Assembly (NCBI GenBank): GCA_945888325.1
Contig: CAMDAC010000007.1
Coordinates: 1 to 64,000 of the forward strand
Length of the DNA: 64,000 nt
Source of the DNA: Candidatus Sulfopaludibacter sp. SbA3
Lineage (GTDB): Bacteria > Pseudomonadota > Alphaproteobacteria > Caulobacterales > Hyphomonadaceae
Direction of reading: 5' to 3'
The position numbers and the translations under genes were made by a program. The notes under the pieces were generated by a model. It ran no database searches. It was not told where the DNA came from and saw nothing but the letters and a program-made list of their open reading frames with translations. Shown piece by piece: positions 22,790 through 39,711 of the stretch (its first letter is position 1; each line of letters opens with the position of its first letter).

Positions 22790-22796
22790 AATTGTC

Positions 22797-22825
22797 ACAA
22801 TACGCTTGTGACTATTTTGTGTCAA
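22797..22825 (-). promoter_or_regulatory. promoter of the CAP gene with palindromic operator
   Basis: On the minus strand TTGACA (22825-22820), 17 bases and TATTGT (22802-22797) form a good sigma-70 promoter. A perfect inverted repeat GTCACAA-N5-TTGTGAC (22794-22800 and 22806-22812) overlaps the -10 and part of the spacer, placed to block RNA polymerase. The predicted transcription start falls at about 22790, directly before the ATG. Confidence 0.6.
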
Positions 22826-22899
22826 GTAATTACAGTATATTGTATTCCTTCAGTACCTTCCGGTGGTGGGTCTGGACCTTGCCGGTAGTGTACGGAAAA

Positions 22900-22917
22900 G
22901 TGTCATTCCGGCGTCAT
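22900..22917 (+). promoter_or_regulatory. Pho-box-like direct repeat before the prolyl-hydroxylase-like gene
   Basis: Two 7-mers, GTGTCAT (22900-22906) and GCGTCAT (22911-22917), are separated by 4 bases. The consensus PhoB half-site is CTGTCAT with the same 7-4-7 spacing; each unit matches at 5 or 6 positions. A TAACCG hexamer follows after 10 bases, the position of a -10 in PhoB-activated promoters. It lies 40 bases before the start codon. Confidence 0.5.
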
Positions 22918-22957
22918 GTCTTCGTCGTAACCGTTGCCTTCCAGAGGAGGCACGACC

Positions 22958-23803
22958 ATGAACGCGGTGACCGGCGAAGACCTGATGACCTACACTTGGG
23001 TCCGCCTCCGCGCCGGGATCGAGCCGCATGAAGTGCGCCGCCAGCTGAAGCTCAAGGGTCTTGGCGACGCGCAGATCCGCGACCTGATGCAGGAGGCCTA
23101 TGACGGCCGCCGCCCGGTCGAAGATGTCTCCTATCCCGGCCTGACCAATGCCGCGATCACCCGGCGCGCGCTGCACCATCCCGACATCCAGAAAATCCCT
23201 ACCCCGAAGGTGCAGCTTTATACTTGGAAGAATTTCCTCGTGCCCGAGATCTGCGATTCGGTGGTGGCGCTGATTGACCAGCGGCTGCGTGACTCCACAA
23301 CGGCGGATGCCTTCGCTGACCCGAAGGTGCGCACCTCCCGGACCTCCGATATCGGTATGCTGGGGCACGACCTGATCATGCAGCTGGATGAACTGATGGC
23401 CGAGGCGATCGGCATCCACTGGTCCTACACCGACGTCACCCAGGGCCAACGCTACGACCTCGATCAGGAATACAAGGCGCACTACGACTATTTCGTCCCC
23501 GGCACGCGCGAACATCAGGTCTTCTGCCAGCTCGGCGGGCAGCGTACCTGGACCTTCATGATCTATCTGAACGATGTCGAAGAAGGCGGCGGCACGCGGT
23601 TCCGGCGCCTCGAAAAGACGATCATGCCGGAGAAGGGCAAGGCTGTGATCTGGAACAATCTCAATCCGGACGGAACGGTTAATCCGTACACGATCCATCA
23701 CGGGATGAAGGTTCGCAAGGGCTCGAAATACGTCATCACGAAGTGGTTCCGCGAGCGCGGGTGGGGTGACATGTTTCCACCAGAATACTACACGAACTTG
23801 TAA
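22958..23803 (+). CDS. 2-oxoglutarate/Fe(II) oxygenase, prolyl 4-hydroxylase-like
   Basis: A 281-residue cytoplasmic protein. The C-terminal half is a P4Hc double-stranded beta-helix: iron ligands His175 and Asp177 (HYDYF) and His247 (IHHGMKV), and the 2-oxoglutarate-binding Lys257 (GSKYVITKW). The N-terminal 80 residues hold a helical segment (EPHEVRRQLKLKGLGDAQI) of unknown role. It should hydroxylate a prolyl or similar side chain on a protein target, consuming O2 and 2-oxoglutarate. GAGGAGG lies seven bases upstream of ATG 22958. A Pho-box-like repeat precedes it and the next gene carries another. Confidence 0.87.
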   Translation: MNAVTGEDLMTYTWVRLRAGIEPHEVRRQLKLKGLGDAQIRDLMQEAYDGRRPVEDVSYPGLTNAAITRRALHHPDIQKIPTPKVQLYTWKNFLVPEICDSVVALIDQRLRDSTTADAFADPKVRTSRTSDIGMLGHDLIMQLDELMAEAIGIHWSYTDVTQGQRYDLDQEYKAHYDYFVPGTREHQVFCQLGGQRTWTFMIYLNDVEEGGGTRFRRLEKTIMPEKGKAVIWNNLNPDGTVNPYTIHHGMKVRKGSKYVITKWFRERGWGDMFPPEYYTNL

Positions 23804-23841
23804 TTGTTGCAGAGCCGACACGATCTCGGCGCCAAATGGTT

Positions 23842-23859
23842 GTGTCACGCAACCGTCAT
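23842..23859 (+). promoter_or_regulatory. Pho-box-like direct repeat before the large lipoprotein gene
   Basis: GTGTCAC (23842-23848) and CCGTCAT (23853-23859) are separated by GCAA, giving 7-4-7 spacing. Matches to CTGTCAT are 5 and 6 of 7. It lies 130 bases before the lipoprotein start codon, leaving room for a 5' leader of about 100 bases (23880-23989). Confidence 0.5.
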
Positions 23860-23989
23860 CTAAACTTCCGGCAATTGTTGCAAACCCCTCTTAAGGGTCA
23901 CGCCTGCGGGTAGGCGGCTGACATCGTCTAGTAAGCGCGGTGGATGCTCCGCCGGTGCACCCGCAACAGGGATCACGACGGAGACAATT

Positions 23990-25555
23990 ATGCTGACAAA
24001 GAATACTTTTCGCTCGGCGCTGCTCGGATGCGCTGCGGTAGCGATCCTCGGCGCCTGTAGCGGCGCAGACGGCGTCGCTTCGCCCGGCGTTGGCGCGTTC
24101 GTGCCCGCCCCCGCCCCGGTCACTCCACCGCCCACCACGCCTCCTCCGCCGACCGGCCCGGCCCCGGGTACGCCTGCCGCTGATTGCCCGGCCGGCTTCT
24201 CGAACGTCGGCACCGTCGCCAACAGCCGCATCTGCCAACTGCCTTCGACGATCACCGGCAACCTCGTAGTCCCCCAGCGTGCTGGTACTATCTATTCCGT
24301 GAGCGGCCGCACCCAGGTCGGTACCGACCTTGGGCCCGACCCGCTCGCACCTCTTGCTGGCGGCCAGCAAGGCATCCTGACCATCGAGCCCGGTGTCACC
24401 ATCTTCGGCAACTCCGGCTTGGATTTCCTTCTCGTGAACCGCGGCTCGCAGATTTTTGCTGAAGGCACCGAGACCGCTCCGATCAAGATGACCTCGCGTC
24501 AGGGCGTCGAAGGCACCGCAACGATCAACTCGATCGGCCAGTGGGGCGGACTCGTGATTAACGGCCGTGCGCCTACGACCGACGGATGCCCTGTCGGCGT
24601 AACGCCCCCTAACATAGCTTGCGAAGCTCAGGTTGAAGGCTCAAACGCGTTCTACGGCGGCAACTCTCCGGCAGAAAATAGCGGCCGTCTGCGTTATCTC
24701 CAGCTCTCCTATTCCGGCTTCGAGATTGCACCGAACAATGAGCTCAATGGTATCACCTTTGCCGGCGTTGGCGCTGGCACTACGGTCGAATACGTGCAGG
24801 TGCACAACAGCTCTGATGACGGCATCGAAATCTTCGGTGGCAACGTAAACCTCAGCAACATAGTGCTTACTGGCAACGACGATGAGTCTTTTGATACCGA
24901 CTCTGGCTGGCGCGGTGCTGCTCAGTTCGGCATCGTGGTGCAGCGTGACGGCGGCGGTGACTTCGGCTGGGAAACCAGCTCCCGTGGTACCAATTCCCCG
25001 ACATTTTTCACCCGGCCGACATACGCCAACTGGACGATCGTGATGCGGCCCACGACCGGCCGTGACACGGTTACTCACAACTCCGGCCATATTGCTCGTG
25101 TCTACAATTCGGTTTTCACAAACCCGACCAACCAGTGCGTAAACGTTGCTGGCAATCCTACCCTGAACAATCCAAACGGGGTTGAAGGAAACGGACCTCT
25201 TTATCGTTCGGTATTCTTCTCCTGCGTCGGCGGAAACGGAGATGGCGGCGCAACCTCGACAGGCAATCCGGACATCCCGGATGCTACAATTGAGGCCCTG
25301 CTGAACCATCCCTCGAACGTTCTCAACGGCACCTCGACTCTAACGAACCGGTTTGTAAACGGCGCTAATGAAGCTGCATTGGCTGTATCGGCATATCCTT
25401 CGGCTTTAAATGACGGCTCTGGGCTTTCTTCTAACGATCCCAACCGCACGACCGCCTTCCTTGTAGCCGCGCCATATGTTGGCGCCGTTCGCGATGCGAG
25501 CGACACTTGGTATCGTGGTTGGTCATGCGGCCTGCCGGGCGAGACGCCCTGCTGA
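23990..25555 (+). CDS. large beta-helix-like lipoprotein, ElpS-type candidate
   Basis: A 521-residue lipoprotein: lipobox ILGAC with Cys23, then a Pro/Thr-rich linker (about 38-62), then a long repetitive domain with many Gly/Asn turns (GILTIEPGVTIFGNSG, GQWGGLVINGRAP, DDGIEIFGGNVNLSNIVLTGNDDESFDTD) that suggests a right-handed parallel beta-helix. Ser at +2 favours outer-membrane or surface sorting. It precedes a TonB receptor and a type II secretion operon. From memory, Caulobacter ElpS is a phosphate-starvation lipoprotein exported by the type II system and encoded beside its gsp genes; this is a candidate equivalent, not confirmed by alignment. Its ligand or activity is unknown. Confidence 0.75.
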   Translation: MLTKNTFRSALLGCAAVAILGACSGADGVASPGVGAFVPAPAPVTPPPTTPPPPTGPAPGTPAADCPAGFSNVGTVANSRICQLPSTITGNLVVPQRAGTIYSVSGRTQVGTDLGPDPLAPLAGGQQGILTIEPGVTIFGNSGLDFLLVNRGSQIFAEGTETAPIKMTSRQGVEGTATINSIGQWGGLVINGRAPTTDGCPVGVTPPNIACEAQVEGSNAFYGGNSPAENSGRLRYLQLSYSGFEIAPNNELNGITFAGVGAGTTVEYVQVHNSSDDGIEIFGGNVNLSNIVLTGNDDESFDTDSGWRGAAQFGIVVQRDGGGDFGWETSSRGTNSPTFFTRPTYANWTIVMRPTTGRDTVTHNSGHIARVYNSVFTNPTNQCVNVAGNPTLNNPNGVEGNGPLYRSVFFSCVGGNGDGGATSTGNPDIPDATIEALLNHPSNVLNGTSTLTNRFVNGANEAALAVSAYPSALNDGSGLSSNDPNRTTAFLVAAPYVGAVRDASDTWYRGWSCGLPGETPC

Positions 25556-25568
25556 TTGCTCAAACATG

Positions 25569-25605
25569 GCGGAGGCCTCTCATCGGGGCCTCCGCTTTTC
25601 TGCTT
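25569..25605 (+). terminator. terminator-like hairpin between lipoprotein and TonB receptor
   Basis: A 9-bp stem GCGGAGGCC/GGCCTCCGC (25569-25577 and 25587-25595) is followed by TTTTCTGCTTTT. It lies 13 bases after the lipoprotein stop and 30 bases before the receptor start. If partial, it would give more lipoprotein than receptor from one promoter. Confidence 0.75.
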
Positions 25606-25637
25606 TTCCCGAAGACTCCACTCAGGATCTCTGACCC

Positions 25638-28316
25638 ATGAAATTCCACTCGCTGTCTCTCCGGGCCCTGTTGATCGCTTCCACAGCGATCCTCGCCCCG
25701 GCCCTCGCCTTCGCTCAGACTGAAACTGAAGCGGAAACAGAAACAGAAACCGAGGCAGCCGAGGCTCCGACCGAAGCTGAGCCCGCCGTCGATGAAGACT
25801 TCCGGCTGAACGAAGTCGTCGTGCTCGGACGATATATCCCCGAAGTGCTTCGCAGCACGTCCGAAGTGGCGGCCTATCTTGCGCCGGAAGACCTTGCGCG
25901 CCAGGGCGATTCCGATGCCGCAAACGCACTCGCCCGCGTTACTGGCCTCAGCATCGCTGAGGGCCGCTTTGTCTATGTCCGCGGCCTTGGCGAGCGCTAT
26001 TCGGCAGCGCGCCTCAACGGCTCGCCGCTCCCCAGCCCCGAGCCGCTCCAACGGGTTGTTCCGCTCGATCTTTTCCCGACCAAGATTCTCGAGAACGTGC
26101 TGGTTCAGAAGACTTACTCGGTCGAGTATCCAGGCGAGTTCGGCGGCGGCATCATTGACCTTCGTACGTTGAACGTGCCGTCCGAAGCCTTCTTCGAAGT
26201 CAGTGTCAGCGGCAGCTACAATTCCGAGACAACCGGAAAAGACGGCCTCACCTATTTCGGATCGGATTCGGATGTCATCGGCTTTGACGATGGCACGCGG
26301 AAAATCCCGGTCGCGGTCCGCCGCGCCATGGCGACGGGCGAGCGCATTCAGAGCGGAAACTTCTCGCCGACCGAACTCCAGACCATTGGACAGTCCTTCA
26401 CTAACGCTGAAGTGAACCTGCTGCAGAACAATGACAGCATTCCGCTCAACGGCAGCTACGAAGTTTCCAGCGGAACCTCGTTCGACCTCGGCGGCGTTGA
26501 ACTCGGCGTCATCGGTGTACTCGGTTACAGCAACGGCTGGCGTACCAAGAACGGCCGTCTTGAGGTTGGCGAGATTTTGGGCGGCGACCTAGAATCTACT
26601 TCAAACTTCGACTATACCTCAACCGATCAGAACATCGGCTGGGACGTTCTGTTCGGTCTAGGCCTCGATGCCGGCGACGACAAGATCGACTGGACCAACC
26701 TTTACATTCGCAAGACGACGAAACAGACTTTCGTCCGCGAGGGTTTCGATGACCTCGCCCTGCGCGACGTTCGCGACGACCGCACGGCCTGGTATGAGCG
26801 CGAATTGTATAGCTCGCAGTTGAACGGCCGCCACTTCCGCGGAAACTGGACGTTTGACTGGCGTACCGCTCTGTCCCAAACGAAACGCGATGCTCCCTAT
26901 GAGCGGGCGATCCGCTATGTGTTCGACCCGCTTGTGAACAACTACGTTTACAACCCGGCAGGTTCGGGCTCGAACAACAGCATTTCGTTTTCGTACATTG
27001 ACGACAAGATTGTCAGTGGCGGCCTCGATGTGAAGTACACCCAGCCGCTTTCGTCAGCCCGCGACATCGAATACTCTGCAGGGATCGAAGGTTACGAGAA
27101 CAATCGCACCGCCCAGACCCGCATCTTCGGTTTTATTGCAGCCAACCCACCGCTGGACTTCCTGGTTACGCAGGAGCGGGTGGATTTCCTTTTCGCCAAC
27201 TTCAACATCAATCCTGATGTTTTCGAAATCCGCGAAACTACCGGTTCCGCAGGCGCCGGCGCATTCGACGCCGATCTGAATGTGTTTGGTGCCTATGCCA
27301 AGGTCGATGCGGAAGTCATTCCGCTGGTCCGCGCCGCCGTCGGCGTGCGCTACGAGAACGCTGCCCAGTCGGTCACGCCGCTTTCGCTGATTTCCTCGGA
27401 AGCCGATCCGGGTCCGGTTCCGGGCGTGAAGAACAACTACATTCTGCCGGCCGCGACGATCACCTGGAACTTCGCCGAAGACCAGCAGCTTCGCCTCGGC
27501 GCCTCGCAGAGCATCGGCCGTCCGCAGTTCCGCGAACTGGCACCGCAGCAGTACTTTGACCCGGATAGCAGCCGCACGTTCATCGGCAACCCCTTCCTGG
27601 CCGATACCGAAATTCTCAACCTCGATGCGCGCTACGAACTCTATTTCGATCGCGGCCAAAGCCTGTCGGCGGGCGTCTTCTACAAAGACCTCGAAAAGCC
27701 GGTCGAGTCGGTCGTCGTCGCGCAGAGCGCGTCGGTCTTCCAGACCTACCTGAATGCCCCGAGCGCCATCCTTTATGGTGCGGAACTTGAATTCAAGCGC
27801 GTCTTCGACAGCCCCTTCTCCGGGGCCATGATGGAGAACAAGGAATTCCTCGTTCAGGCCAACTACACCTACTCGAAATCGGAAGTTCAGGCGAGCGCAG
27901 GCGACGTTGTGTTTCCGCTTCAGGCCAACGGCCAGGGCCGTCCTGCCACGGATTTCGTGGTCGACGGTTCGCGTCTCCAGGGACAGTCCGAACACCTGGC
28001 CAACATCCAGCTGGGCTGGCAGGACGACGCGGCAAGATCGCAGGCCACCGTGCTCGCGACCTATGCCAGTGAGCGCACGTCTGCCCGCGCCCCGGCCGGC
28101 CAGCCCGACTTCATCCAGGAACCGGGCATCAACCTCGATATCGTCTACAAGAAGGGCTTCGATGTCCGCGGGCGCGAATTCACCTTCGACGTGAAGGCCC
28201 AGAACCTTCTCGGTGAAGACTTTGACGAGTTCCAGTCAGGCAATAACGGCTTCGTCCAGGTCAACCAGTACGACCTCGGCACCACCGTTTCGCTCGGCCT
28301 GAGCACGGAATTCTGA
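25638..28316 (+). CDS. TonB-dependent receptor paired with the lipoprotein
   Basis: An 892-residue receptor. A signal peptide (1-26, ending ALAFAQ) is followed by an acidic Thr/Glu repeat (27-48). The plug (about 55-190) has the family block LARVTGLSIAEGRFVYVRGLGERYSA and EYPGEFGGGIIDLRT. The beta-barrel ends with Phe892. This receptor type is widespread in Caulobacterales and sphingomonads, usually with a lipoprotein neighbour, and its substrate is not established. No obvious TonB box is seen; FRLNEVVVLG at about 55-64 may serve. ATG 25638 has AGGAT about ten bases upstream. It may depend on readthrough of the terminator or on its own promoter. Confidence 0.92.
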   Translation: MKFHSLSLRALLIASTAILAPALAFAQTETEAETETETEAAEAPTEAEPAVDEDFRLNEVVVLGRYIPEVLRSTSEVAAYLAPEDLARQGDSDAANALARVTGLSIAEGRFVYVRGLGERYSAARLNGSPLPSPEPLQRVVPLDLFPTKILENVLVQKTYSVEYPGEFGGGIIDLRTLNVPSEAFFEVSVSGSYNSETTGKDGLTYFGSDSDVIGFDDGTRKIPVAVRRAMATGERIQSGNFSPTELQTIGQSFTNAEVNLLQNNDSIPLNGSYEVSSGTSFDLGGVELGVIGVLGYSNGWRTKNGRLEVGEILGGDLESTSNFDYTSTDQNIGWDVLFGLGLDAGDDKIDWTNLYIRKTTKQTFVREGFDDLALRDVRDDRTAWYERELYSSQLNGRHFRGNWTFDWRTALSQTKRDAPYERAIRYVFDPLVNNYVYNPAGSGSNNSISFSYIDDKIVSGGLDVKYTQPLSSARDIEYSAGIEGYENNRTAQTRIFGFIAANPPLDFLVTQERVDFLFANFNINPDVFEIRETTGSAGAGAFDADLNVFGAYAKVDAEVIPLVRAAVGVRYENAAQSVTPLSLISSEADPGPVPGVKNNYILPAATITWNFAEDQQLRLGASQSIGRPQFRELAPQQYFDPDSSRTFIGNPFLADTEILNLDARYELYFDRGQSLSAGVFYKDLEKPVESVVVAQSASVFQTYLNAPSAILYGAELEFKRVFDSPFSGAMMENKEFLVQANYTYSKSEVQASAGDVVFPLQANGQGRPATDFVVDGSRLQGQSEHLANIQLGWQDDAARSQATVLATYASERTSARAPAGQPDFIQEPGINLDIVYKKGFDVRGREFTFDVKAQNLLGEDFDEFQSGNNGFVQVNQYDLGTTVSLGLSTEF

Positions 28317-28327
28317 TCTGGCAGGCG

Positions 28328-28357
28328 GGAGGCCGTTGCGTAACTGCAACGGTCTCC
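28328..28357 (+). terminator. hairpin after the TonB receptor gene
   Basis: GGAGGCCGTTGC (28328-28339) pairs over 12 positions, including one G-T wobble, with GCAACGGTCTCC (28346-28357), with a 6-base loop. No T-tract follows, so it may be a factor-dependent or mRNA-stabilising structure rather than a full terminator. It lies 11 bases beyond the stop codon. Confidence 0.45.
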
Positions 28358-28393
28358 GGACTGAAGTGAAATTGGAGCCGGATCGTCGCGGAA

Positions 28394-28411
28394 CTGTCGC
28401 ACAAGTGTGAT
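28394..28411 (+). promoter_or_regulatory. Pho-box-like direct repeat before gspC
   Basis: CTGTCGC (28394-28400) and GTGTGAT (28405-28411) are separated by ACAA, again 7-4-7 spacing. Each matches CTGTCAT at 5 of 7. It is the weakest of the three such sites, 33 bases before the gspC start, where an operon promoter is expected. Confidence 0.4.
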
Positions 28412-28443
28412 TAGCGTGAAGGTACGGATCGAAGGGGTTTCCG

Positions 28444-29322
28444 ATGGCGGCGCTTTTCAGAATGGAAAGAGGCATACCTTACGTGCGCATGGAAAACGCC
28501 GGCCGGATGGCCGTGGAATCCCTCTTGATGGTTACCGTCGGGGTCCTGGTCGGTCGGCTCGCCTGGGTCGCCCTCGCACCGCCGGACGCCGGAGCCCCGC
28601 TTCAGGATTCCGCGACGCTGTCGTCTGAAAGCCTCCAAGCTTCGGGCAGCGCGTCGACCACGGTCCTCCTGACCCAGATGAACCCTTTCGGGGGCGCTCC
28701 CCAGATGTATGCGGCCGACGCTCAGACGGCAGCCGAAACCACGCTCGACCTGAAACTCGCCGGTGTCCGTTCGGTCTCCGGCAACGCGTCCGCCAGCAGC
28801 GCCGTGATTTCCTTCCCCGACGGTGCGCAGAAGCGCTTCGTCCCCGGCGAAGAAGTGATGCCCGGCATCCTGCTCGTGAACGTCACGTCTGACGCCATTC
28901 ACCTGAGCCGAAACGGCTCCATTGAATCGCTCAGCCTCTATCCTTACCGCACGGCGCCCTTCGTTCAGGACCCCGCGCAGTCCGCGCCCGCCGAAGCGCG
29001 TGTCTACGCGTCGGACACTGTGGCACCGGTGGTCGATGTCACGCCGGCCGCCCTCGCCGCCGATACCGCATTGACCCCGGAATTCCGCAGCGGGGAAGTG
29101 TCGGGCTACCGGCTTGAGCCGCGCGGCGCTGGCGCCTTCGAGGCCGCCGGCCTGCAATCGGGCGATCTCATTCTCCGCATCAACGGCCAGGCCATCGAGG
29201 GCCTGCGTCCCGACCAGATCAACCAGTCCGTCTCCAGCAGTTCAGACGTCGCGCTGGATATTGTCCGTCAGGGCGCCATCGTGCGCCTGCGTGTTGCTCC
29301 CGGCGCCAACCTTTCCCAATGA
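28444..29322 (+). CDS. gspC: type II secretion system protein GspC
   Basis: A 292-residue inner-membrane protein: a membrane segment at about 26-46, an HR domain (about 98-170, LKLAGVRSV, AVISFPDGAQKRFVPGEEV), a linker, and a PDZ domain at about 215-285 (YRLEPRGAGAFEAAGLQSGDLILRINGQ). GspC links the inner-membrane platform to the secretin GspD, and the PDZ domain helps recognise cargo. AAGGGG lies before ATG 28444. It is the first gene of a 12-gene unit; gspD starts within its stop codon (ATGA). Confidence 0.93.
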   Translation: MAALFRMERGIPYVRMENAGRMAVESLLMVTVGVLVGRLAWVALAPPDAGAPLQDSATLSSESLQASGSASTTVLLTQMNPFGGAPQMYAADAQTAAETTLDLKLAGVRSVSGNASASSAVISFPDGAQKRFVPGEEVMPGILLVNVTSDAIHLSRNGSIESLSLYPYRTAPFVQDPAQSAPAEARVYASDTVAPVVDVTPAALAADTALTPEFRSGEVSGYRLEPRGAGAFEAAGLQSGDLILRINGQAIEGLRPDQINQSVSSSSDVALDIVRQGAIVRLRVAPGANLSQ

Positions 29323-31292: not shown

Positions 31293-31298
31293 TCGCGC

Positions 31299-32783: not shown

Positions 32784-33981
32784 TTACAAGGCCCTGACCG
32801 CCGATGGCCGGCGCACCAGCGGTGTGATTTCTGCGGACAATCCGCGCTCCGCCCGGCGCGAGCTGCGCGCCCGCCAGCTGACGCCCGTCGAGGTCGAGGA
32901 ATCCGGCCAGTCGAAGTCACGCGGCGCCCGCCTGCGGGGCCGCCTCTCGCACAAGCAGCGCACGCTCTTTACCCGCCAGATGGCCGTCCTGCTGCAATCC
33001 GGCATGACGGTGGAGCAGGCCCTGACCGCTGCCGCCGCCGATGGCAGCGCGGCGTCCGTGAAAGCCCTGATCCTCGGCGTCCGCGCGCAGGTCATGGAAG
33101 GCGTCACTCTCGCCGACTCCCTTCGCTCGGCGCCTTCCGCCTTCCCCGCGCTTTACCGCTCCGTGGTGTCGGCCGGCGAGTCTTCCGGCAAGCTGCCCGC
33201 CGTGCTCGACCAGCTCGCGACCAATCTGGAGCGCACCTACAAGATGGCCTCCACCGCGCGGGCCGCGCTGGTCTATCCCGCCGTGCTCGGCGTGATGGCC
33301 CTGCTGATGGTCACCGCCCTGATGGTCTTCGTCGTGCCCAAACTCGTCGAGCAGTTCGCGATGCTCGGCACCACCGAACTGCCGCTTCTCACGCAGATCG
33401 TGATCGGCGCCTCGGACTTCGCCCGCAACTGGGGCTGGCTCCTCGCCCTGTGTATCTTCGCCGGCATCACGGTCTTCTCGCAGGCGATGAAAAGCCCCGC
33501 GTTCCGCAAATCCCTCGACGCCTTCCTGCTCGGGCTCCCGCTGATCGGCCCCCTGATCCAGACGCTCTCCGCCGCGCAGTTCGCACGGGTCCACGCCACC
33601 CTCGCCGGCTCCGGCGCCACCGTCATCGAAGCCCTCTCCGCCGCGCGCGGCGCGATGAGCAATGCCGTATTCCGCGACGCCGCGACCGCAATCATCGAAC
33701 AGGTGCAGCAGGGCGGCACGCTCTCGTCTGCCATGCGCGCGACAGAGGTTTTCCCGCCACTCCTCACGCACATGGTGCAGAGCGGCGAAGCGGCGCGCGA
33801 TGTGCCCGCGATGATGAACCGCGCCGCCGATTTCCTCGAAAGCGAATTCGAGGCCACCACCCGCACACTGCTGAGCCTGCTTGAGCCGGCCATCATCGTG
33901 ATCCTGGGCGGCATTGTCGGCACGATCGTGCTATCGATCATGCTGCCCATCATGCAGCTCAACACCCTTGCCCTCGGTTGA
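32770..33981 (+). CDS. gspF: type II secretion platform protein GspF
   Basis: A 403-residue polytopic inner-membrane protein with the duplicated GspF fold. The first half starts at about 65 (LFTRQMAVLLQSGMTVEQAL) and the second at about 270 (FARVHATLAGSGATVIEALSAA). Membrane segments lie near 165-190, 215-235 and 370-395. It sits at the centre of the platform and contacts GspE. The start at 32770 has AGGGAGG nine bases upstream and the family opening MAAYDYKAL. An in-frame start at 32743 is rejected. Confidence 0.95.
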   Translation: MAAYDYKALTADGRRTSGVISADNPRSARRELRARQLTPVEVEESGQSKSRGARLRGRLSHKQRTLFTRQMAVLLQSGMTVEQALTAAAADGSAASVKALILGVRAQVMEGVTLADSLRSAPSAFPALYRSVVSAGESSGKLPAVLDQLATNLERTYKMASTARAALVYPAVLGVMALLMVTALMVFVVPKLVEQFAMLGTTELPLLTQIVIGASDFARNWGWLLALCIFAGITVFSQAMKSPAFRKSLDAFLLGLPLIGPLIQTLSAAQFARVHATLAGSGATVIEALSAARGAMSNAVFRDAATAIIEQVQQGGTLSSAMRATEVFPPLLTHMVQSGEAARDVPAMMNRAADFLESEFEATTRTLLSLLEPAIIVILGGIVGTIVLSIMLPIMQLNTLALG

Positions 33982-33992
33982 CGGAGGAACAC

Positions 33993-34448
33993 ATGCCCCA
34001 CCCCCAACACATCACCCAGAAACGCCGCGCCCGCGAGGCCGGCTTCTCGCTCGTCGAACTGATGGTGGTCGTCTTCATCATGGGTCTCCTGGCGACCCTG
34101 ATCATCGTCAACGTCGCACCGGTCGGCGACCGCTCGCGCATCTCGAAGGCCCGCTCGGACATCGCGAGCCTCGAAAGCGCGCTCGAGCAGTACAGCCTTG
34201 ACCTCTACACCTACCCCAACGCCGCCGAAGGCCTCGCTGCCCTATCGGCCCCGCCTCCGGGCGTCGACGCCGCGCTTTACCGTCAGGGCGGCTATGTGCG
34301 CCGTATACAGATGGATCCCTGGGGCAACCCCTACCAGTACCAGATGCCCGGCACCCGCTCCGGCGGCCGCTACGATCTGTTCTCCTTCGGCGCCGATGGC
34401 CAGCCGGGCGGCGAAGGTCCGGACGCAGACATCGGCAACTGGGACTAG
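33993..34448 (+). CDS. gspG: major pseudopilin GspG
   Basis: A 151-residue pseudopilin. The prepilin cleavage site is EAG/FSLVELM with the conserved Glu at position 5 of the mature protein, followed by a 20-residue hydrophobic helix. The C-terminal globular part carries the GspG features YPNAAEGLAAL and DPWGNPYQY, plus an acidic calcium-binding-like loop (DADIGNWD). It is the main subunit of the pseudopilus. GGAGG lies five bases before ATG 33993, 11 bases after the gspF stop. Confidence 0.96.
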   Translation: MPHPQHITQKRRAREAGFSLVELMVVVFIMGLLATLIIVNVAPVGDRSRISKARSDIASLESALEQYSLDLYTYPNAAEGLAALSAPPPGVDAALYRQGGYVRRIQMDPWGNPYQYQMPGTRSGGRYDLFSFGADGQPGGEGPDADIGNWD

Positions 34449-34456
34449 GCCGCGCC

Positions 34457-34951
34457 ATGCCCGCGCCCCGCCCGCACTCAAGCCAAGCCTCCCTCCCGGC
34501 GCCCCGCCGCCCGGGCGAGGCGGGCCTGTCGCTGGTGGAAGTGCTGGTCACGCTGTCGATTTCCGCCTTCGCGGCGGTCCTGATCGTCGCCACGGCCCGC
34601 CCCGCCGATCCCCTGCGCAGTGACGGCGAGAAACTGTCACGCACGCTGGCGCAGCTCGAAGGCCGCGCCCACATCTCCGGCAAGCCGACCGGCCTGCTGC
34701 TCGACGAGACCGGCTATACCGGCATGGTCTGGGCCGGCGGAGACTGGTCCGCCCTGCCCCGCAGCCGCCACGCGCTCAGCCGCGGCGTCGAAATCCAGTT
34801 AACCCTCTCCCCCAAGGAGATTGGCGAAAGCCAGACACCCCAGCTCGTCTTCGACCCGCTCGGCCACTCGGCGATCGATCCGGTCATCCTGCGCGCCCAG
34901 AACCGCGAATGGCCCGTCACCCTGCCGGCCAGAACGGTGGCCGCCCCGTGA
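34457..34951 (+). CDS. gspH: minor pseudopilin GspH
   Basis: A 164-residue pseudopilin. The prepilin motif is GEAG/LSLVEVLV near residue 22 followed by a hydrophobic helix. The C-terminal domain is short and beta-rich (GRAHISGKPTGLLLDETGY, then LVFDPLGHSAID). GspH joins GspI, J and K at the pseudopilus tip. The leader before the cleavage site is long (about 22 residues) and Pro-rich. Its stop codon overlaps the GTG start of gspI. Confidence 0.85.
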   Translation: MPAPRPHSSQASLPAPRRPGEAGLSLVEVLVTLSISAFAAVLIVATARPADPLRSDGEKLSRTLAQLEGRAHISGKPTGLLLDETGYTGMVWAGGDWSALPRSRHALSRGVEIQLTLSPKEIGESQTPQLVFDPLGHSAIDPVILRAQNREWPVTLPARTVAAP

Positions 34952-35316
34952 ACACACGCGGCTTCTCCCTTCTCGAAACCATGGTTGCCCTGTCGGTATT
35001 CTCCATCGCCGCGATGGGGCTCCTCTCGCTCAACACCCAGTCGGTGCGCATCAGCAGCGAACTTGACCTGCGTCTCCTCGCCCGCACCGTCGCCGAGAAC
35101 GTCGCGGTCGACACCGTCACCGGCGCGCTCGCCGCACCCGGCCTCGTGGCCGAAGGCGAGGATGTCCAGCGTGGCCGCGAATTCAAGTGGACGCGCACGA
35201 TCGAGCCGACGCCGCGCCCGGGACTCTACAGTGTCCGGATCGAAGTGACGGAAGCCTCCAGCCCCGCGGTCCTAGCGCGCCTCTCGCTGCTGACCGCGCA
35301 AGGCGATCGCTCATGA
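34948..35316 (+). CDS. gspI: minor pseudopilin GspI
   Basis: A 122-residue pseudopilin with a short leader and the cleavage motif RG/FSLLETMVALSVF. The globular part includes RTVAENVAVDTVTG, typical of GspI. It nucleates the tip complex with GspJ and GspK. The start is GTG at 34948, overlapping the gspH stop as GTGA, which gives the normal short leader. An upstream ATG at 34909 would give an implausible leader. It ends in an ATGA overlap with gspJ. Confidence 0.88.
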   Translation: MNTRGFSLLETMVALSVFSIAAMGLLSLNTQSVRISSELDLRLLARTVAENVAVDTVTGALAAPGLVAEGEDVQRGREFKWTRTIEPTPRPGLYSVRIEVTEASSPAVLARLSLLTAQGDRS

Positions 35317-35930
35317 GCGCCCCCCGCAATTCCCAGGCCGGCGTCACGCTCATCGAAACGCTGGTCGCGCTGTTCGTCATCGCCCTGATGGCGACCGCCG
35401 GAGCGGTGATGACCAACCAGTCACTCCGCGGCGCCCGCGCCGTCGAGACGCGCGGTGATGCCGCCTCCGAAATGTCCATCGCCCTCGGCATCCTCTCGGC
35501 AGACCTCGCCGCCTATACCGGCCGCTCCAGCGCGGACGCCGCCGCCTCCGAAGGCCCCCTCGCCTTCTCCGGCCACCCGCCCCGCCATGACGGGCGCCTG
35601 ATGGTCTTTGTACGGAACGGCTGGGACAATCCCCTCGGCGAGACCCGCAGCGACCTGCAGCGGGTGGAATACCTGTTCGCGAACGGCGCGCTGATCCGCC
35701 GGTCCTGGGCCGCGCCGGATCCCGTTCCGGCCACCCCCATGGTGGAGGAAGTCCTCCTCACGGGCCTCCAGTCCGTCGAAGCCCGCTTTGGCCGCGCCGA
35801 GATCTGGCAGGATGACTGGCGCGTCGCGGGCACTGGCGACGACCCCGCCCCTCAGAAGGTCGAGCTGACCTTCACCTTCGCCCCGGACGATACGCTGACC
35901 GCCCGCTACCTGATCGGAGCCGGCGCATGA
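35313..35930 (+). CDS. gspJ: minor pseudopilin GspJ
   Basis: A 205-residue pseudopilin. The cleavage motif is QAG/VTLIETLVALFVIALM and the body contains VFVRNGWDNP and RVEYLFANGALIRRSW, both typical of GspJ. It is part of the pseudopilus tip. The ATG at 35313 lies in an ATGA overlap with gspI, and its end overlaps gspK in the same way, which implies translational coupling through the run. Confidence 0.92.
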   Translation: MSAPRNSQAGVTLIETLVALFVIALMATAGAVMTNQSLRGARAVETRGDAASEMSIALGILSADLAAYTGRSSADAAASEGPLAFSGHPPRHDGRLMVFVRNGWDNPLGETRSDLQRVEYLFANGALIRRSWAAPDPVPATPMVEEVLLTGLQSVEARFGRAEIWQDDWRVAGTGDDPAPQKVELTFTFAPDDTLTARYLIGAGA

Positions 35931-36901
35931 TCCCGCAAACCAAGCAGGCCGGCGCCGCCCTCCTCTCGATCCTCCTGATCGTCGCCACGCTGTCGGTCGC
36001 CGCCCTGATGGCCACCGAAGCCATCGCCCGGCAGACCGATCTGCAGAAACTCAGCGCCCGCCGCACCTCCGCCCTCTGGGCCGCGCGCTCCGCCGAGGCC
36101 GCCGCGCTCGCCGGCGCCGCTGATCTCGTCGCCGCCAGCCGCCTGCCCGCCAGCAGCGGCGGCAATGGCCGGGAGCAGACCCTCGTCCTGCCGGTCGAGA
36201 GCGGCCAGATCATCCTAACACTGAGGGAACTGCCGCCCTGTCTCAACCTGAACGCCCTGGCAAACACCGACGAGACTCTCCGGGCGCCCCAAGCCGCCGC
36301 CTTCGCGGTCCTCCTCGAAGACATCGGCGTGCCGCTCAGCGACGCGGCCTCCCTCGCCGCAACGCTCGGAGACTGGATTGACGCGGACCAGACCCCGCAA
36401 CCCGGCGGCGGCGAAGATGCCGCCTATCTGGCAAGTTCCAGCGGCACGTGCACGGCTGGTCAGCCCCTCCGCAGCCCGGCAGAGCTCGTCCCGGTGCCCG
36501 GCTACACGCCCGAGCTGATTCAGGCGATCTCTCCCTTCACCTGCACTGTTCCGCTGACGGATGGTCTGCGCGTCAATGTGAACGCACTGACGGCCGAAAA
36601 CGCGAGCGTCCTGCGCGCTGCTACGCGCGGCGCCCTGTCCGCCGCCGACGCGCGCCGCTTCATAGAGGCGCGCCCCACCAGCGGTTGGAACAGCGTCCAG
36701 GACGTGGCCGATTTCGCCCAGGGCCGGCAGGCCTACGCGCAGGTTTTCGCCGAAGTGCCCCTCGCGGTGCGCGGCGAATACTTCACGGGCGAGGGCAGCG
36801 TCGAACTCGACGCTGGCAGCTGGCCCTTCCGCTTCATCCTGCACGCCGGCGCAGACGGCGCGCCGCGGATCGTCTGGCGCTCGTTCGGAGACGCCGGATG
36901 A
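35927..36901 (+). CDS. gspK: minor pseudopilin GspK
   Basis: A 324-residue pseudopilin, the large tip subunit. The N-terminal segment QAG/AALLSILLIVATLSV lacks the Glu at mature position 5, as is normal for GspK. The body has LNLNALANT, DWIDADQTP and the closing helix-hairpin-like RRFIEARPTSGWNSVQDV. GspK caps the pseudopilus. The gene overlaps gspJ and gspL by 4 bases each. Confidence 0.93.
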   Translation: MIPQTKQAGAALLSILLIVATLSVAALMATEAIARQTDLQKLSARRTSALWAARSAEAAALAGAADLVAASRLPASSGGNGREQTLVLPVESGQIILTLRELPPCLNLNALANTDETLRAPQAAAFAVLLEDIGVPLSDAASLAATLGDWIDADQTPQPGGGEDAAYLASSSGTCTAGQPLRSPAELVPVPGYTPELIQAISPFTCTVPLTDGLRVNVNALTAENASVLRAATRGALSAADARRFIEARPTSGWNSVQDVADFAQGRQAYAQVFAEVPLAVRGEYFTGEGSVELDAGSWPFRFILHAGADGAPRIVWRSFGDAG

Positions 36902-38016
36902 AAGCGGACCTCTACATCGAACTGCCCTCGGTCCCGGACGGCCCGCTCCGGCTCGCGCGCTGGCGCGGCGGCGAGATCGAACACGTGCCGCTGGGCCGCG
37001 CCGCCACCAATGCCCGCACCAAGGCGATTGCCTTTGCCCCCGCCCTCTGCGTTGCAAAGTTTCGTGTCCCGGTCGCGGCGAAATCGGAATCCGAAGCCCG
37101 CAAGACGGCGCTCTATGCGGTGGAGGACGATCTCGCCCAGCCCGTCGAAGACGTCCATCTGACCCTCGGCCCTAAGGGCAAGACGGATGCGGCGCGCGAT
37201 GCCTACATCGTCGACCGCCGCATGATGCGCGCCTGGACCGACGCGCTCGCCGCGCTGAACCTCGACCACGCCCAGATCATTGCGGAAAACAGCCTCAGGC
37301 TGCCGCAAGGCGCGCTGCTGGACTTCGGCGACCGGCTGCTGCTCAGCCATGATGGCAGCGCCGTCGCCGCCGACCCCGCCTGGCCGGACGAAGCCCTCCG
37401 TGAACTGATCAGCGCCTGCGGCCTCGGCAACGCGCGCCGCACGTCGGCCAATGCCCTGGAAACCCTGATCCCCTTGCAAACCCAGTCTCTCGGCATCGCG
37501 CTCGAGGGTGCAGACGGCGACGCCGCCCGCCGCCGCGCCGGCAAGGGCCTCGGCCGCTGGCTCTTCGCGGGCGCCCTCGCCCTCGCCGCCGCGGGGCTCT
37601 GGCTCGCCAGCGTCTGGTTCGAGACAAACGGACTGCAGCAAGCCGCGGCCCGCAACGAGGCCGCCGCCCGCGCCGCCTACCGCGCGCAATTCCCCGGCGC
37701 GCCGGAACCCGCCGACATCGGCGCCGATGTTCGCCGCCTGTCCGCCCAGCTCGTCGGCGGCGCGCCCGCCGGGTTCCGCGCCCTCGCCGCCGCCCTCTAT
37801 GGCGCCTTGCCGGACAGCCCCTCCGTCCGCGTCGTCAGCCTCACCTATACTGGCGGCGAAGCAGCCCTCCGTACGCGGATACAATTCTCAACCCGCGCCG
37901 AGGAGGCCGCCGTCCGGTCGCGTCTTGAGGCGTCCGGTTTCCAGGTCGAAACGGAATCGGTCACCGACCTTCCAACCGGCATCGAAGCCAGTCTCATCGT
38001 GAGGGCCGCGCCATGA
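36898..38016 (+). CDS. gspL: type II secretion protein GspL
   Basis: A 372-residue bitopic membrane protein. The cytoplasmic actin-like part (1-215) binds GspE (RLARWRGGEIEHVPLG). A membrane segment lies at about 220-240 (GALALAAAGLWLASVWF) and a periplasmic ferredoxin-like domain follows (about 290-372). It couples the ATPase to the platform. ATG 36898 overlaps the gspK stop as ATGA and matches the family start. A longer in-frame reading from 36448 is rejected because it lies over gspK. Confidence 0.9.
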   Translation: MKADLYIELPSVPDGPLRLARWRGGEIEHVPLGRAATNARTKAIAFAPALCVAKFRVPVAAKSESEARKTALYAVEDDLAQPVEDVHLTLGPKGKTDAARDAYIVDRRMMRAWTDALAALNLDHAQIIAENSLRLPQGALLDFGDRLLLSHDGSAVAADPAWPDEALRELISACGLGNARRTSANALETLIPLQTQSLGIALEGADGDAARRRAGKGLGRWLFAGALALAAAGLWLASVWFETNGLQQAAARNEAAARAAYRAQFPGAPEPADIGADVRRLSAQLVGGAPAGFRALAAALYGALPDSPSVRVVSLTYTGGEAALRTRIQFSTRAEEAAVRSRLEASGFQVETESVTDLPTGIEASLIVRAAP

Positions 38017-38477
38017 AAACCTGGTGGGACCAACGCGCGCCTCGGGAGCAGCTCCTGCTGCTCGCCGCCGCCTTCGTCCTCGTCCTCGCAGTCATCGTGC
38101 AGGGCGTGCTCATCCCGTCGCTGGCGCGGCGCACTGCCGCCGAAGAGGCCCTCGCCGAATCCGGGCGCACCTTGGTCCGCCTCGAAAGGCTGCGCGACGC
38201 CGGCATCGCGCTGGCCGCCCCGCCGGCCAGCCCGCAAGACGCGCCCGCCCTCGCCGCAGACTGGGCCGCCCGGTCCGGCCTCATCGCCGATCCGCAACTG
38301 ACGTCCGCCTCCGAACTCCGCTTCGCCTTCAAGGCCGCAGACCCCGGCGCCGTGTTCCAGTGGATTGAAGAGTCCGAAACCGGGCTCGGGATCACCGTCC
38401 AGTCCGCACAGATCATCGCCGCGCAGCCCGGCCAGGTGGACGCGGTCGTCGTCTTCTCCGCGCCCCCCGCGCCATGA
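38013..38477 (+). CDS. gspM: type II secretion protein GspM
   Basis: A 154-residue bitopic protein: a short cytoplasmic start (KTWWDQRAPREQ), a membrane segment at about 15-35 and a periplasmic ferredoxin-like domain ending LGITVQSAQIIAAQPGQVDAVV. It pairs with GspL in the platform. Size and layout are typical. It overlaps gspL and gspN by 4 bases each. Confidence 0.88.
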   Translation: MKTWWDQRAPREQLLLLAAAFVLVLAVIVQGVLIPSLARRTAAEEALAESGRTLVRLERLRDAGIALAAPPASPQDAPALAADWAARSGLIADPQLTSASELRFAFKAADPGAVFQWIEESETGLGITVQSAQIIAAQPGQVDAVVVFSAPPAP

Positions 38478-39232
38478 ACCGGCTCATTCTCCTCGCGCTG
38501 CTGCTCGTCGGCGTGCTGATCGGCCTCGCCGTGTTTGCCCCGCTGAGCGCCGCGTTGAAGTTTGCCGGCGTCGAGGCACGCGGCCTCGGCTGGTCGCGCG
38601 CCGAAGGCACGGTCCTCGACGGACGCCTGACCGGTCTCGAGGCCGGCGGTGAGCGCTACGGCGACGCGGACCTGAAACTTGCGCCCGCCGCCCTTCTGGC
38701 GGGTCGCCTTCAGTACACGGTCGATTGGCAGGGCGAGCACGGAAGCGGCACAGGCGACCTCTCCCTCGGCGCCGGTGGCGGCGTTGCCGCGCGCGACTTC
38801 GCCCTCGACCTTGATCTCGTCCGCCTCGAACAGGCCGCCCTCTGGATCCGCCAGTCCGGAGGCCGCGTCCAGCTCGTGGGAGAGGCCATCCGCTTCGACC
38901 GCGACGGCTGCCTCTCCGCCAGCGGCACCGCCCGCAGCGACGTGCTGGAGCGCAACCGGGAAATCCTCGGCGCCGGCTGGTCGCCCATGCAGGGCGAGCT
39001 GAGATGCGAGGGTACCGCTCTGGTGATCGCGCTGGAGTCCGAAAACACCTCGGGCACCCGTTTCCGCGCCGAGCTGCGCCTTGCGCCGCAGCAGCCCGGC
39101 CGGTTTGATGCCCGCGTCTCAGGCCTCATCCCGCGTGACCTCGCTTTCGCGCTCCCCATCGCCGGGTTTGCGCCGGACGGGCGCGACTGGGTATACTCGT
39201 TCTCGACCTCAGACCGGAGTGGTCCCAAATGA
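38474..39232 (+). CDS. gspN: type II secretion protein GspN
   Basis: A 252-residue protein with one N-terminal membrane segment (4-26) and a strand-rich periplasmic domain (GLGWSRAEGTVLDGRLTGL, then ALVIALES). GspN is an accessory component found in some type II systems; its role is not well defined. It is coupled to gspM and to the following lipoprotein by ATGA overlaps. Confidence 0.82.
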   Translation: MNRLILLALLLVGVLIGLAVFAPLSAALKFAGVEARGLGWSRAEGTVLDGRLTGLEAGGERYGDADLKLAPAALLAGRLQYTVDWQGEHGSGTGDLSLGAGGGVAARDFALDLDLVRLEQAALWIRQSGGRVQLVGEAIRFDRDGCLSASGTARSDVLERNREILGAGWSPMQGELRCEGTALVIALESENTSGTRFRAELRLAPQQPGRFDARVSGLIPRDLAFALPIAGFAPDGRDWVYSFSTSDRSGPK

Positions 39233-39711
39233 TGAAGCCCCTGTTCCTCGCCGCGGCCCTTTGCGCACTCGCCGCCTGCGCCAGCTCGCCGGAGCAGGAG
39301 GCGGCGAAAGCCGCCGCGGCCGCCCCTGCGATCAGCACGGTCCCCGCCGAAGGCCTGCCGCCCCAGCGCCTCGCGCCCGGCGAGTGCGGCCTGTTCCTGT
39401 GGAGCATGTCGGCGCCGCGCCGGTTCGTCTTCTTCACCAAAGGCTCGTCCGGCGACGCGCTGGTGCTGATCGGCGACAAGACCACCTCGATCCCGATGAC
39501 CTCCGCCGGCGGCGATGTCTTCGGCCAGTTCCTGACGAAGATGACGTTCGAAGACCTCGCTTCAAAGGCGAAGGTCACCGTCTCCATCGAACCCGGCAAA
39601 CCCCTCGAAGGCGGCCAGCGCGTCGGCAGCGGCAACATCCAGTTCCGCGACGCCGAAGGCTGGGAAACCGTCCTGCCTGTCACCGGCGTGCGCGCCTGCA
39701 TGCCCGGCTGA
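39229..39711 (+). CDS. operon-terminal lipoprotein of the gsp cluster
   Basis: A 160-residue lipoprotein (lipobox LAAC, Cys16) with an Ala-rich linker and a compact domain (LAPGECGLFLWS, PRRFVFFTKG, LVLIGDKTTSIPMTSAGGDVFGQF). It is the last gene of the operon, joined to gspN by an ATGA overlap, so it is made with the secretion machine. Pilotins that carry the secretin to the outer membrane are small lipoproteins, so a pilotin-like or secretin-stabilising role is a reasonable guess; the sequence does not resemble the helical GspS or the TPR-type PilF. I do not recognise the family. Confidence 0.75.
   Translation: MMKPLFLAAALCALAACASSPEQEAAKAAAAAPAISTVPAEGLPPQRLAPGECGLFLWSMSAPRRFVFFTKGSSGDALVLIGDKTTSIPMTSAGGDVFGQFLTKMTFEDLASKAKVTVSIEPGKPLEGGQRVGSGNIQFRDAEGWETVLPVTGVRACMPG

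What the first reader, a model, noticed from the sequence alone, without database searches (positions are those of the whole stretch)
22900..39711. Candidate phosphate-starvation locus joining a hydroxylase, a lipoprotein/TonB pair and a whole type II secretion operon
Three 7-4-7 direct repeats close to the PhoB consensus CTGTCAT-N4-CTGTCAT occur at 22900-22917, 23842-23859 and 28394-28411, each at the front of one transcription unit (prolyl-hydroxylase-like gene, large lipoprotein, gspC). By eye I noticed no comparable repeat at the other promoters. In Caulobacter, as I recall, a phosphate-induced lipoprotein (ElpS) is exported by the type II system encoded next to it; the same gene set is grouped here and adds an oxygenase and a TonB receptor. 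Repeats are seen; regulation and homology are inferred.
Basis: partly seen in the sequence, partly recalled or inferred. Interest (0 to 1): 0.8.

Follow-up and report, generated by a model that had tools for sequence, protein, structure and literature searches.

The report
Phosphate-starvation lipoprotein locus with prolyl hydroxylase
This Hyphomonas locus appears to be switched on by phosphate shortage to make and release a surface lipoprotein, and in this group of bacteria it has gained a collagen-type prolyl hydroxylase that may modify the proline-rich tether holding the lipoprotein to the cell.

Summary
The repeats are real; two of three are placed correctly. Consensus match alone is weak, but the blocks recur in 15 of 15 Hyphomonas sequences. 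A matrix built only from pstC promoters ranks the gspC and ElpS-gene sites 3rd and 6th of 127,966 positions. The hydroxylase site ranks only 77th, yet shares pstC geometry exactly: TA at box+27 in 15 of 15 (pstC 30 of 30).

ElpS, TonB receptor and T2SS together, PhoB-controlled, are already known in Caulobacter (PMC2996285, PMC11208175, PMC5172544). The new part is the hydroxylase, a prolyl 4-hydroxylase by sequence, motif and predicted fold. Here it belongs to one Hyphomonas clade; 26 of 28 Sphingomonadales genomes with a relative also have ElpS, though rarely side by side. ElpS tethers with it are mostly Ala/Thr/Ser-Pro-rich (44 of 48 against 6 of 35), but with about 4 independent contrasts this is only suggestive. 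I propose that it hydroxylates the ElpS tether: inferred, not shown.

The parts
22016..22789 (-). CAP/SCP-domain protein gene, divergent from the hydroxylase gene (start codon uncertain: ATG 22789, or GTG/TTG further up to 22825)
   Evidence: Pfam CAP; found divergent from the hydroxylase gene in 14 of 14 relatives
22782..22799 (+). fourth PhoB-like box TGTAACATAATTGTCACA, overlapping the CAP start
   Evidence: rank 1 of 127,966 positions with the pstC matrix; best site upstream of the hydroxylase gene in 10 of 11 named loci of the clade
22900..22917 (+). PhoB box of the prolyl 4-hydroxylase gene; TA of the likely -10 at 22928-22929
   Evidence: GTCA-N7-GTCA and TA at +27 in 15 of 15; pstC matrix rank only 77
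22958..23803 (+). prolyl 4-hydroxylase, 281 aa; no signal peptide seen by eye
   Evidence: Pfam 2OG-FeII_Oxy_3; bacterial P4H 5iax E 2e-24; H175, D177, H247/H248, K257 invariant in 22; model pLDDT 88.9 and P4H fold
23842..23859 (+). PhoB box of the ElpS-type lipoprotein gene
   Evidence: rank 6 of 127,966; conserved block ending GTCATCTAAACTT; upstream region p<0.05 in 12 of 14 relatives (in L035 the best site is another one)
23882..23989 (+). conserved 5' leader of the lipoprotein gene, possible three-way junction
   Evidence: 27 predicted pairs, 3 with changes on both sides, in 14 sequences; window sequence alone z -0.21
23990..25555 (+). ElpS-type lipoprotein, 521 aa, predicted beta-helix-like body
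   Evidence: lipobox LGAC, Cys23 (invariant in 14); beside TonB receptor and T2SS; AlphaFold pLDDT 72, only weak beta-helix matches
24089..24184 (+). codons of the Pro-rich tether (residues 34-65) between lipid Cys and first domain Cys
25638..28316 (+). TonB-dependent receptor, 892 aa
   Evidence: Pfam Plug; TIGR01782 below its cut-off
28383..28400 (+). PhoB box of gspC (correct register; reader gave 28394-28411); TA of the likely -10 at 28412-28413
   Evidence: rank 3 of 127,966; 14 of 14 relatives at p<0.05
28444..29322 (+). gspC
   Evidence: Pfam T2SSC
29319..31292 (+). gspD secretin
   Evidence: Pfam Secretin
31299..32783 (+). gspE ATPase
   Evidence: Pfam T2SSE
32743..33981 (+). gspF
   Evidence: Pfam T2SSF
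33978..34448 (+). gspG
   Evidence: Pfam T2SSG
34457..34951 (+). gspH-like pseudopilin
   Evidence: N_methyl just below cut-off, position
34909..35316 (+). gspI
   Evidence: Pfam T2SSI
35313..35930 (+). gspJ
   Evidence: Pfam T2SSJ
35927..36901 (+). gspK
   Evidence: Pfam T2SSK
36898..38016 (+). gspL
   Evidence: Pfam T2SSL, TIGR01709 (searched from 36895)
38013..38477 (+). gspM
   Evidence: Pfam T2SSM
38474..39232 (+). gspN
   Evidence: Pfam T2SSN
39229..39711 (+). small lipoprotein-like protein, last gene of the block
   Evidence: matched in 12 of 14 relatives; the stretches L041 and L046 end before it; no Pfam or NCBIfam match

Best explanation
A PhoB-controlled phosphate-starvation island. 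When phosphate is low, PhoB binds pst-type boxes in front of (1) a prolyl 4-hydroxylase, (2) an ElpS-type surface lipoprotein, with the TonB receptor read from the same or its own constitutive start, and (3) the gspC-N T2SS operon. ElpS sits on the cell surface on a flexible tether and is cut free in a T2SS-dependent step, as shown in Caulobacter. The hydroxylase, which I take to be cytoplasmic, most likely hydroxylates prolines of the Ala/Thr/Ser-Pro-rich ElpS tether before export, stiffening it or changing where and whether the releasing protease can cut. Shown here: sites, conservation, geometry, gene order, enzyme family, co-occurrence with ElpS, tether composition. Inferred: PhoB binding, expression, the enzyme's substrate and place, the effect on release. 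Rough confidence: PhoB control 0.9; hydroxylase acts on ElpS 0.4.
Against: No expression or biochemical data for this organism. The hydroxylase box scores poorly with the pst matrix (rank 77; rank 87 with a matrix of the other three promoter classes). P4H relatives outside Hyphomonas show no Pho box upstream (2 of 68 at p<0.05, as by chance; L167 apart at 0.083), so joint regulation is clade-specific. P4H and ElpS are mostly not neighbours outside the clade: ElpS within the stretch in 3 of 69 loci, and on different contigs in the 8 other P4H genomes of the family. Tether link is not significant on the tree: 4 independent pairs on supported branches, same way 3.0, opposite 0.2 on average; total proline content does not differ (p 0.58). 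The four P4H+ exceptions (L034, L040, L042, L045) all lie in the window's own clade, and the window's tether itself holds PPP and PPPP runs. Five P4H- rows with four or more [AST]P are Pro-rich g10 and g5 ElpS (L047, L048, L049, L051, L124); the sixth, L273, has a PT-repeat tether and no P4H found (87% complete genome). G411 and G416 have P4H and gspD but no ElpS.
Confidence: 0.5

Rival explanations
1. The locus is PhoB-controlled, but the hydroxylase acts on something else: a general substrate such as EF-Tu, a T2SS pseudopilin (it neighbours gspI-J-K in Novosphingobium, Blastomonas and Sphingorhabdus) or another exported protein; its place beside ElpS only brings it under phosphate control.
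For: B. anthracis and P. putida P4Hs whose PDB titles name EF-Tu are among the structural relatives; gspI-J-K adjacency in 11 of 69 non-Hyphomonas loci; 2 of 28 Sphingomonadales P4H genomes have gspD but no ElpS.
Against: 18 of 28 Sphingomonadales P4H genomes lack gspD, and all 18 have ElpS; a general target such as EF-Tu would not predict ElpS in 6 of 6 sampled genomes with a strong P4H.
Confidence: 0.35
2. The tether pattern and the co-occurrence are inheritance: a few lineages happen to share P4H, ElpS and TP/AP-rich tethers, without functional link.
For: Only 7 changes of P4H state and 4 well supported independent pairs on the ElpS tree; the sign test cannot reach 0.05.
Against: Direction agrees in 3.0 of 4 pairs on average and rarely opposes; P4H adjoins ElpS or T2SS genes in three different arrangements; 0 of 17 other lipoprotein-like ORFs around the 69 non-Hyphomonas P4H loci has such a tether (small control).
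Confidence: 0.3
3. The repeats are sites of another regulator, or of PhoB only at the ElpS gene and gspC; the hydroxylase promoter is regulated otherwise.
For: The hydroxylase site ranks 77th with the pstC matrix and its spacer differs from pst.
Against: Same 11-bp repeat phase, same TA at +27 in 15 of 15, and nearly the same distance to the start codon (57 against 59-61 for pstC in the rows printed).
Confidence: 0.12

Closest known systems
Caulobacter crescentus elpS (cc0170) - cc0171 - gspC-N locus (PMC2996285; PhoB regulon PMC11208175, PMC5172544)
   Same: Surface lipoprotein, TonB receptor and T2SS in the same order; phosphate-starvation induction depends on PhoB there; the paper lists Hyphomonas neptunium with a similar organisation
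   Different: Here a prolyl 4-hydroxylase with a PhoB-type box and a divergent CAP gene head the block; tether is Pro-rich. The Caulobacter protein itself was not compared by sequence here
Bacillus anthracis-type prolyl 4-hydroxylase (PDB 5iax, 3itq, 5v7y)
   Same: Catalytic domain with HxD...H...K residues, about 28-29% identity over model residues 54-271
   Different: Extra N-terminal helical part of some 50-60 residues not covered by those matches; different gene neighbourhood (recalled)
Chlamydomonas reinhardtii prolyl 4-hydroxylase type I with (Ser-Pro)5 peptide (PDB 3gze, 2jig)
   Different: Eukaryotic secretory-pathway enzyme of cell-wall proteins (recalled); here bacterial and apparently cytoplasmic
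PKHD-type PiuC beside siderophore TonB receptors
   Same: 2OG oxygenase beside a TonB receptor gene (link recalled)
   Different: Much weaker structural match (9qn0, Foldseek rank 40, E 1.1e-6)

Membership tests
Caulobacter-type ElpS / T2SS phosphate-starvation locus | lipoprotein, TonB receptor and gspC-N adjacent in this order | tested here: met
   order as described in PMC2996285 passages
Caulobacter-type ElpS / T2SS phosphate-starvation locus | sequence homology of the lipoprotein to Caulobacter ElpS itself | not tested
Caulobacter-type ElpS / T2SS phosphate-starvation locus | lipobox and tether | tested here: met
   LGAC with Cys23 and 32-residue tether
Caulobacter-type ElpS / T2SS phosphate-starvation locus | T2SS-dependent release in low phosphate | not testable with these tools
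   needs experiment
PhoB box (Pho regulon), ElpS gene and gspC | match to the genus's own pst promoter boxes | tested here: met
   gspC rank 3, ElpS gene rank 6 of 127,966
PhoB box (Pho regulon), hydroxylase promoter | match to pst boxes by matrix | tested here: inconclusive
   rank 77 but identical geometry in 15 of 15
PhoB box (Pho regulon) | PhoB binding and phosphate response | not testable with these tools
   needs experiment
Prolyl 4-hydroxylase (2OG-Fe(II) oxygenase) | HxD...H iron triad and basic 2OG-binding residue | tested here: met
   H175, D177, H247/H248, K257 invariant in 22 sequences
Prolyl 4-hydroxylase (2OG-Fe(II) oxygenase) | fold of known P4Hs | tested here: met
Prolyl 4-hydroxylase (2OG-Fe(II) oxygenase) | hydroxylation of peptidyl proline | not testable with these tools
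   needs assay
PKHD-type hydroxylase PiuC | fold closest to PiuC | tested here: inconclusive
   PiuC chain 9qn0 is far below P4Hs in Foldseek order; not in the VIA list shown
Type II secretion system | complete C-N gene set | tested here: met
   C, D, E, F, G, I, J, K, L, M, N by Pfam; H only by weak N_methyl and position; gspO was not looked for

The most novel reading that the evidence does not exclude
A bacterial, PhoB-controlled prolyl 4-hydroxylase dedicated to the tether of a surface lipoprotein: alternating Ala/Thr/Ser-Pro repeats, like the hydroxyproline-rich cell-wall proteins of algae and plants, are hydroxylated in the cytoplasm before export, and this oxygen- and 2-oxoglutarate-dependent mark decides how the phosphate-scavenging protein is held or released.
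Probability: 0.35. Interest if true: 0.82.

Novelty: new variant of a known kind. Interest (0 to 1): 0.58.

Why it matters
As I recall, few native substrates of bacterial prolyl 4-hydroxylases are known; this locus gives a named candidate enzyme-substrate pair with a condition (low phosphate) under which both should be made, so it can be tested by one mass-spectrometry comparison. It would tie phosphate starvation, oxygen and 2-oxoglutarate to the release of a surface protein. It also gives Hyphomonas promoters with which to define a Pho matrix outside Caulobacter.

Tried and rejected
Consensus scan of the window with the E. coli-type Pho box: too weak to decide; one-mismatch GTCAY pair scan likewise (12 found, 8.97 expected, 21 of 100 shuffles as many). 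Pho box upstream of P4H outside Hyphomonas: none beyond chance (2 of 68; the script then stopped with an error in its last section, and that part was redone differently). The combined matrix took two of its 12 hydroxylase sites (L042, L045) in a wrong register; searches use pstC sites only. In one search the upstream limit was estimated where the match began inside the protein. Pro-richness as such as the mark of P4H genomes: rejected (p 0.58); the [AST]P pattern separates them. Cut-offs for the tether were chosen after seeing the tethers; one search gives four definitions, and two of them (Pro>=25%, Gly<20%) show hardly any difference in the independent pairs. Six loci gave no parsable tether and were dropped (L037, L275 with P4H; L052, L110, L286, L287 without); L273 was held as unknown there and counted as P4H-minus. 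The gene for ElpS in G051 (L037, L156) is out of frame near its start and was left out of the tether counts; its readable part was one row of A3. Scan of the window for other X-Pro repeats printed nothing and also missed ElpS itself, so it says nothing. ElpS leader: no Rfam match there, single-sequence fold not special. Foldseek for ElpS: no match with E <= 0.001. Slr4 S-layer protein came up in a search and was read in passages; nothing there tied it to this locus. Literature: no paper found holding prolyl 4-hydroxylase with Hyphomonas or with Sphingomonas and type II secretion; some searches gave listings only, with nothing on this pair in the rows shown. Lubin et al. 2016 (PhoB regulon) is not held. 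Papers: PMC2996285 abstract, part 1 of 3 of the Results and passages; PMC11208175, PMC5172544 and PMC7821379 passages only. The class-level probability of 6 of 6 in 12 of 387 (about 2e-10) is hand arithmetic, not corrected for kinship, and only the first 6 or 3 candidates per genome were scored. The list was capped at the best 80 of 570.
Full report
What is there. The window lies in a Hyphomonas-type genome: the 11 closest of 80 named loci carry the same block, six of them titled Hyphomonas, one H. polymorpha. Genes run: CAP-domain protein (-), oxygenase (+), 521-aa lipoprotein, TonB receptor, gspC to gspN, a 160-aa lipoprotein-like protein. In 14 of 14 fetched relatives of the same clade CAP, oxygenase, lipoprotein, TonB receptor and T2SS genes keep this order as far as the stretches reach; the last small gene is seen in 12, the other two stretches end before it.

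The repeats. Plain consensus matching is weak. Three other tests carry the case. First, alignment of the three upstream regions in 15 sequences shows the repeats as conserved blocks. Second, I built a matrix from the pstC promoters of the genus (30 loci, 15 distinct sites), none from this locus. Third, geometry: a TA step lies exactly 27 bases from the first box base in 30 of 30 pstC promoters and 15 of 15 oxygenase promoters, and 28 (14) or 29 (1) bases in the 15 gspC promoters; in the rows printed, box to start codon is 59-61, 57 and 57-61 bases. The lipoprotein promoter differs: its box is about 147 bases from the start, a TA at +29 is seen in 9 of 14, and a conserved leader follows. So the oxygenase promoter looks like a pst promoter even though its spacer letters differ. 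In the whole genome the strict pattern KTCAYNNNNNBGTCAY occurs 20 times against 11 for the reversed control.

Corrections. A fourth box at 22782-22799 was missed. It overlaps the start of the CAP gene, where a conserved TTA leucine codon (rare in a 65% GC genome, by general knowledge) suggests DNA-level constraint; a TTGACA-17-TATTGT-like promoter for CAP can be read just beside it. Repression of CAP by PhoB is my inference.

How far phosphate control reaches. With the pstC-only matrix, upstream regions of ElpS-type genes reach p<0.05 in 12 of 14 (this clade), 5 of 7 (single-domain ElpS of genera g10 and g5), 11 of 35 (double-domain ElpS, Hyphomonadaceae), 1 of 4 (other families) and 16 of 25 (Sphingomonadales). 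For gspC it is 14 of 14, 1 of 3 and 0 of 12. Controls: gspD 0 of 14, 0 of 6, 0 of 14; TonB receptor 0 of 14, 0 of 7, 0 of 35, 0 of 4, 0 of 25. So ElpS is widely and probably anciently under PhoB, while the strong gspC box and the oxygenase box look clade-specific in this sample.

What is already known. In Caulobacter ElpS is made in phosphate starvation, sits on the surface, and is released in a T2SS-dependent way; the released form starts at Asn38, the lipid cysteine is residue 20 (PMC2996285). The T2SS is in the PhoB regulon (PMC11208175 passages), and elpS promoter induction needs PhoB (PMC5172544 passages).

Link to ElpS. Of the 80 closest named P4H loci, 69 are not Hyphomonas blocks, mostly Sphingomonadales by title. 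Among these 69, 3 carry ElpS and TonB receptor beside P4H, two of them with gspC-G and I-K on the other side, and 13 carry T2SS genes in all, 11 of them gspI-J-K alone. I searched 30 of those 69 genomes (28 Sphingomonadales and two Hyphomonadaceae, the latter apparently G087 and G079 of the family again): 28 of 30 have ElpS and 12 of 30 a T2SS secretin. Among the 28 Sphingomonadales: 8 both, 18 ElpS only, 2 secretin only, none neither. In an even sample of 387 Alphaproteobacteria, 6 genomes have a strong P4H match and all 6 are among the 12 with ElpS; two weaker P4H matches split one and one. Relatedness inflates this, since five of the six are one family.

The tether. Between lipid cysteine and the first domain cysteine ElpS proteins have a low-complexity stretch. 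In P4H genomes it is mostly made of Ala/Thr/Ser-Pro steps (such as APAPTPTPTPTP), in the window's clade mixed with PPP runs; without P4H it is mostly poly-Gly or unbroken poly-Pro. Counts with at least four such steps: 44 of 48 with P4H, 6 of 35 without; Mann-Whitney 1e-12 on 48 against 34 without regard to kinship. On an ElpS tree of 83 rows P4H changes 7 times; in 4 independent well supported pairs the tether goes the same way in 3.0 and the opposite way in 0.2 on average. That is the right direction but too few to be significant. Exceptions are listed under evidence against. In Caulobacter the release cut falls in this stretch, so a modification there would be well placed to control release.

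Most likely working. Low phosphate, PhoB, three promoters on; the hydroxylase made in the cytoplasm acts on the tether of ElpS before Sec export; ElpS is lipidated, reaches the surface, and is cut free with the help of the T2SS. All of this chain is inferred for this organism; the sites, genes and patterns are what was seen.

Noticed in passing
window 22782-22825: The best pst-type box of the window overlaps the start of the divergent CAP-domain gene, beside a TTGACA-17-TATTGT-like promoter; a possible PhoB-repressed, nearly leaderless gene.
   Followed up: partly
window 22826-22875: Partly conserved TAC/GTA-rich repeats (TACAGTATATTGTATTCCTTCAGTA) between CAP and the hydroxylase gene in the clade; looks like operator sites of an unknown regulator.
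   Followed up: no
window 23882-23989: Conserved 5' leader of the ElpS-type gene with a possible three-way junction (3 of 27 pairs with changes on both sides); the Shine-Dalgarno stretch pairs with an upstream UCUU in the prediction.
   Followed up: partly
L106-L123, L125: ElpS occurs as a tandem double-domain protein of about 900-1000 aa in many genomes of the family, single-domain in the window's clade.
   Followed up: partly
L175, L181, L187, L188, L191, L193, L200, L204, L208, L209, L221: In these 11 Novosphingobium, Blastomonas and Sphingorhabdus loci gspI-J-K lie beside P4H with no other T2SS gene detected in the stretch; in L191 the flanks hold ccm and bamA-type genes by eye, as in Erythrobacter loci without T2SS.
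   Followed up: partly
L156 and L161: Record titles name Acidobacteria and Sulfopaludibacter, yet both carry the Hyphomonas block (P4H 97% and 79% identical); mislabelled records or bins. In L156 (G051) the ElpS-type gene is out of frame near its start.
   Followed up: no
window 39229-39711: Small lipoprotein-like protein closing the T2SS operon, conserved in the clade, without Pfam or NCBIfam match.
   Followed up: no
G000:C7:119437-119982: A second, distant P4H-like protein (418-aa frame) on the same contig outside the window.
   Followed up: no
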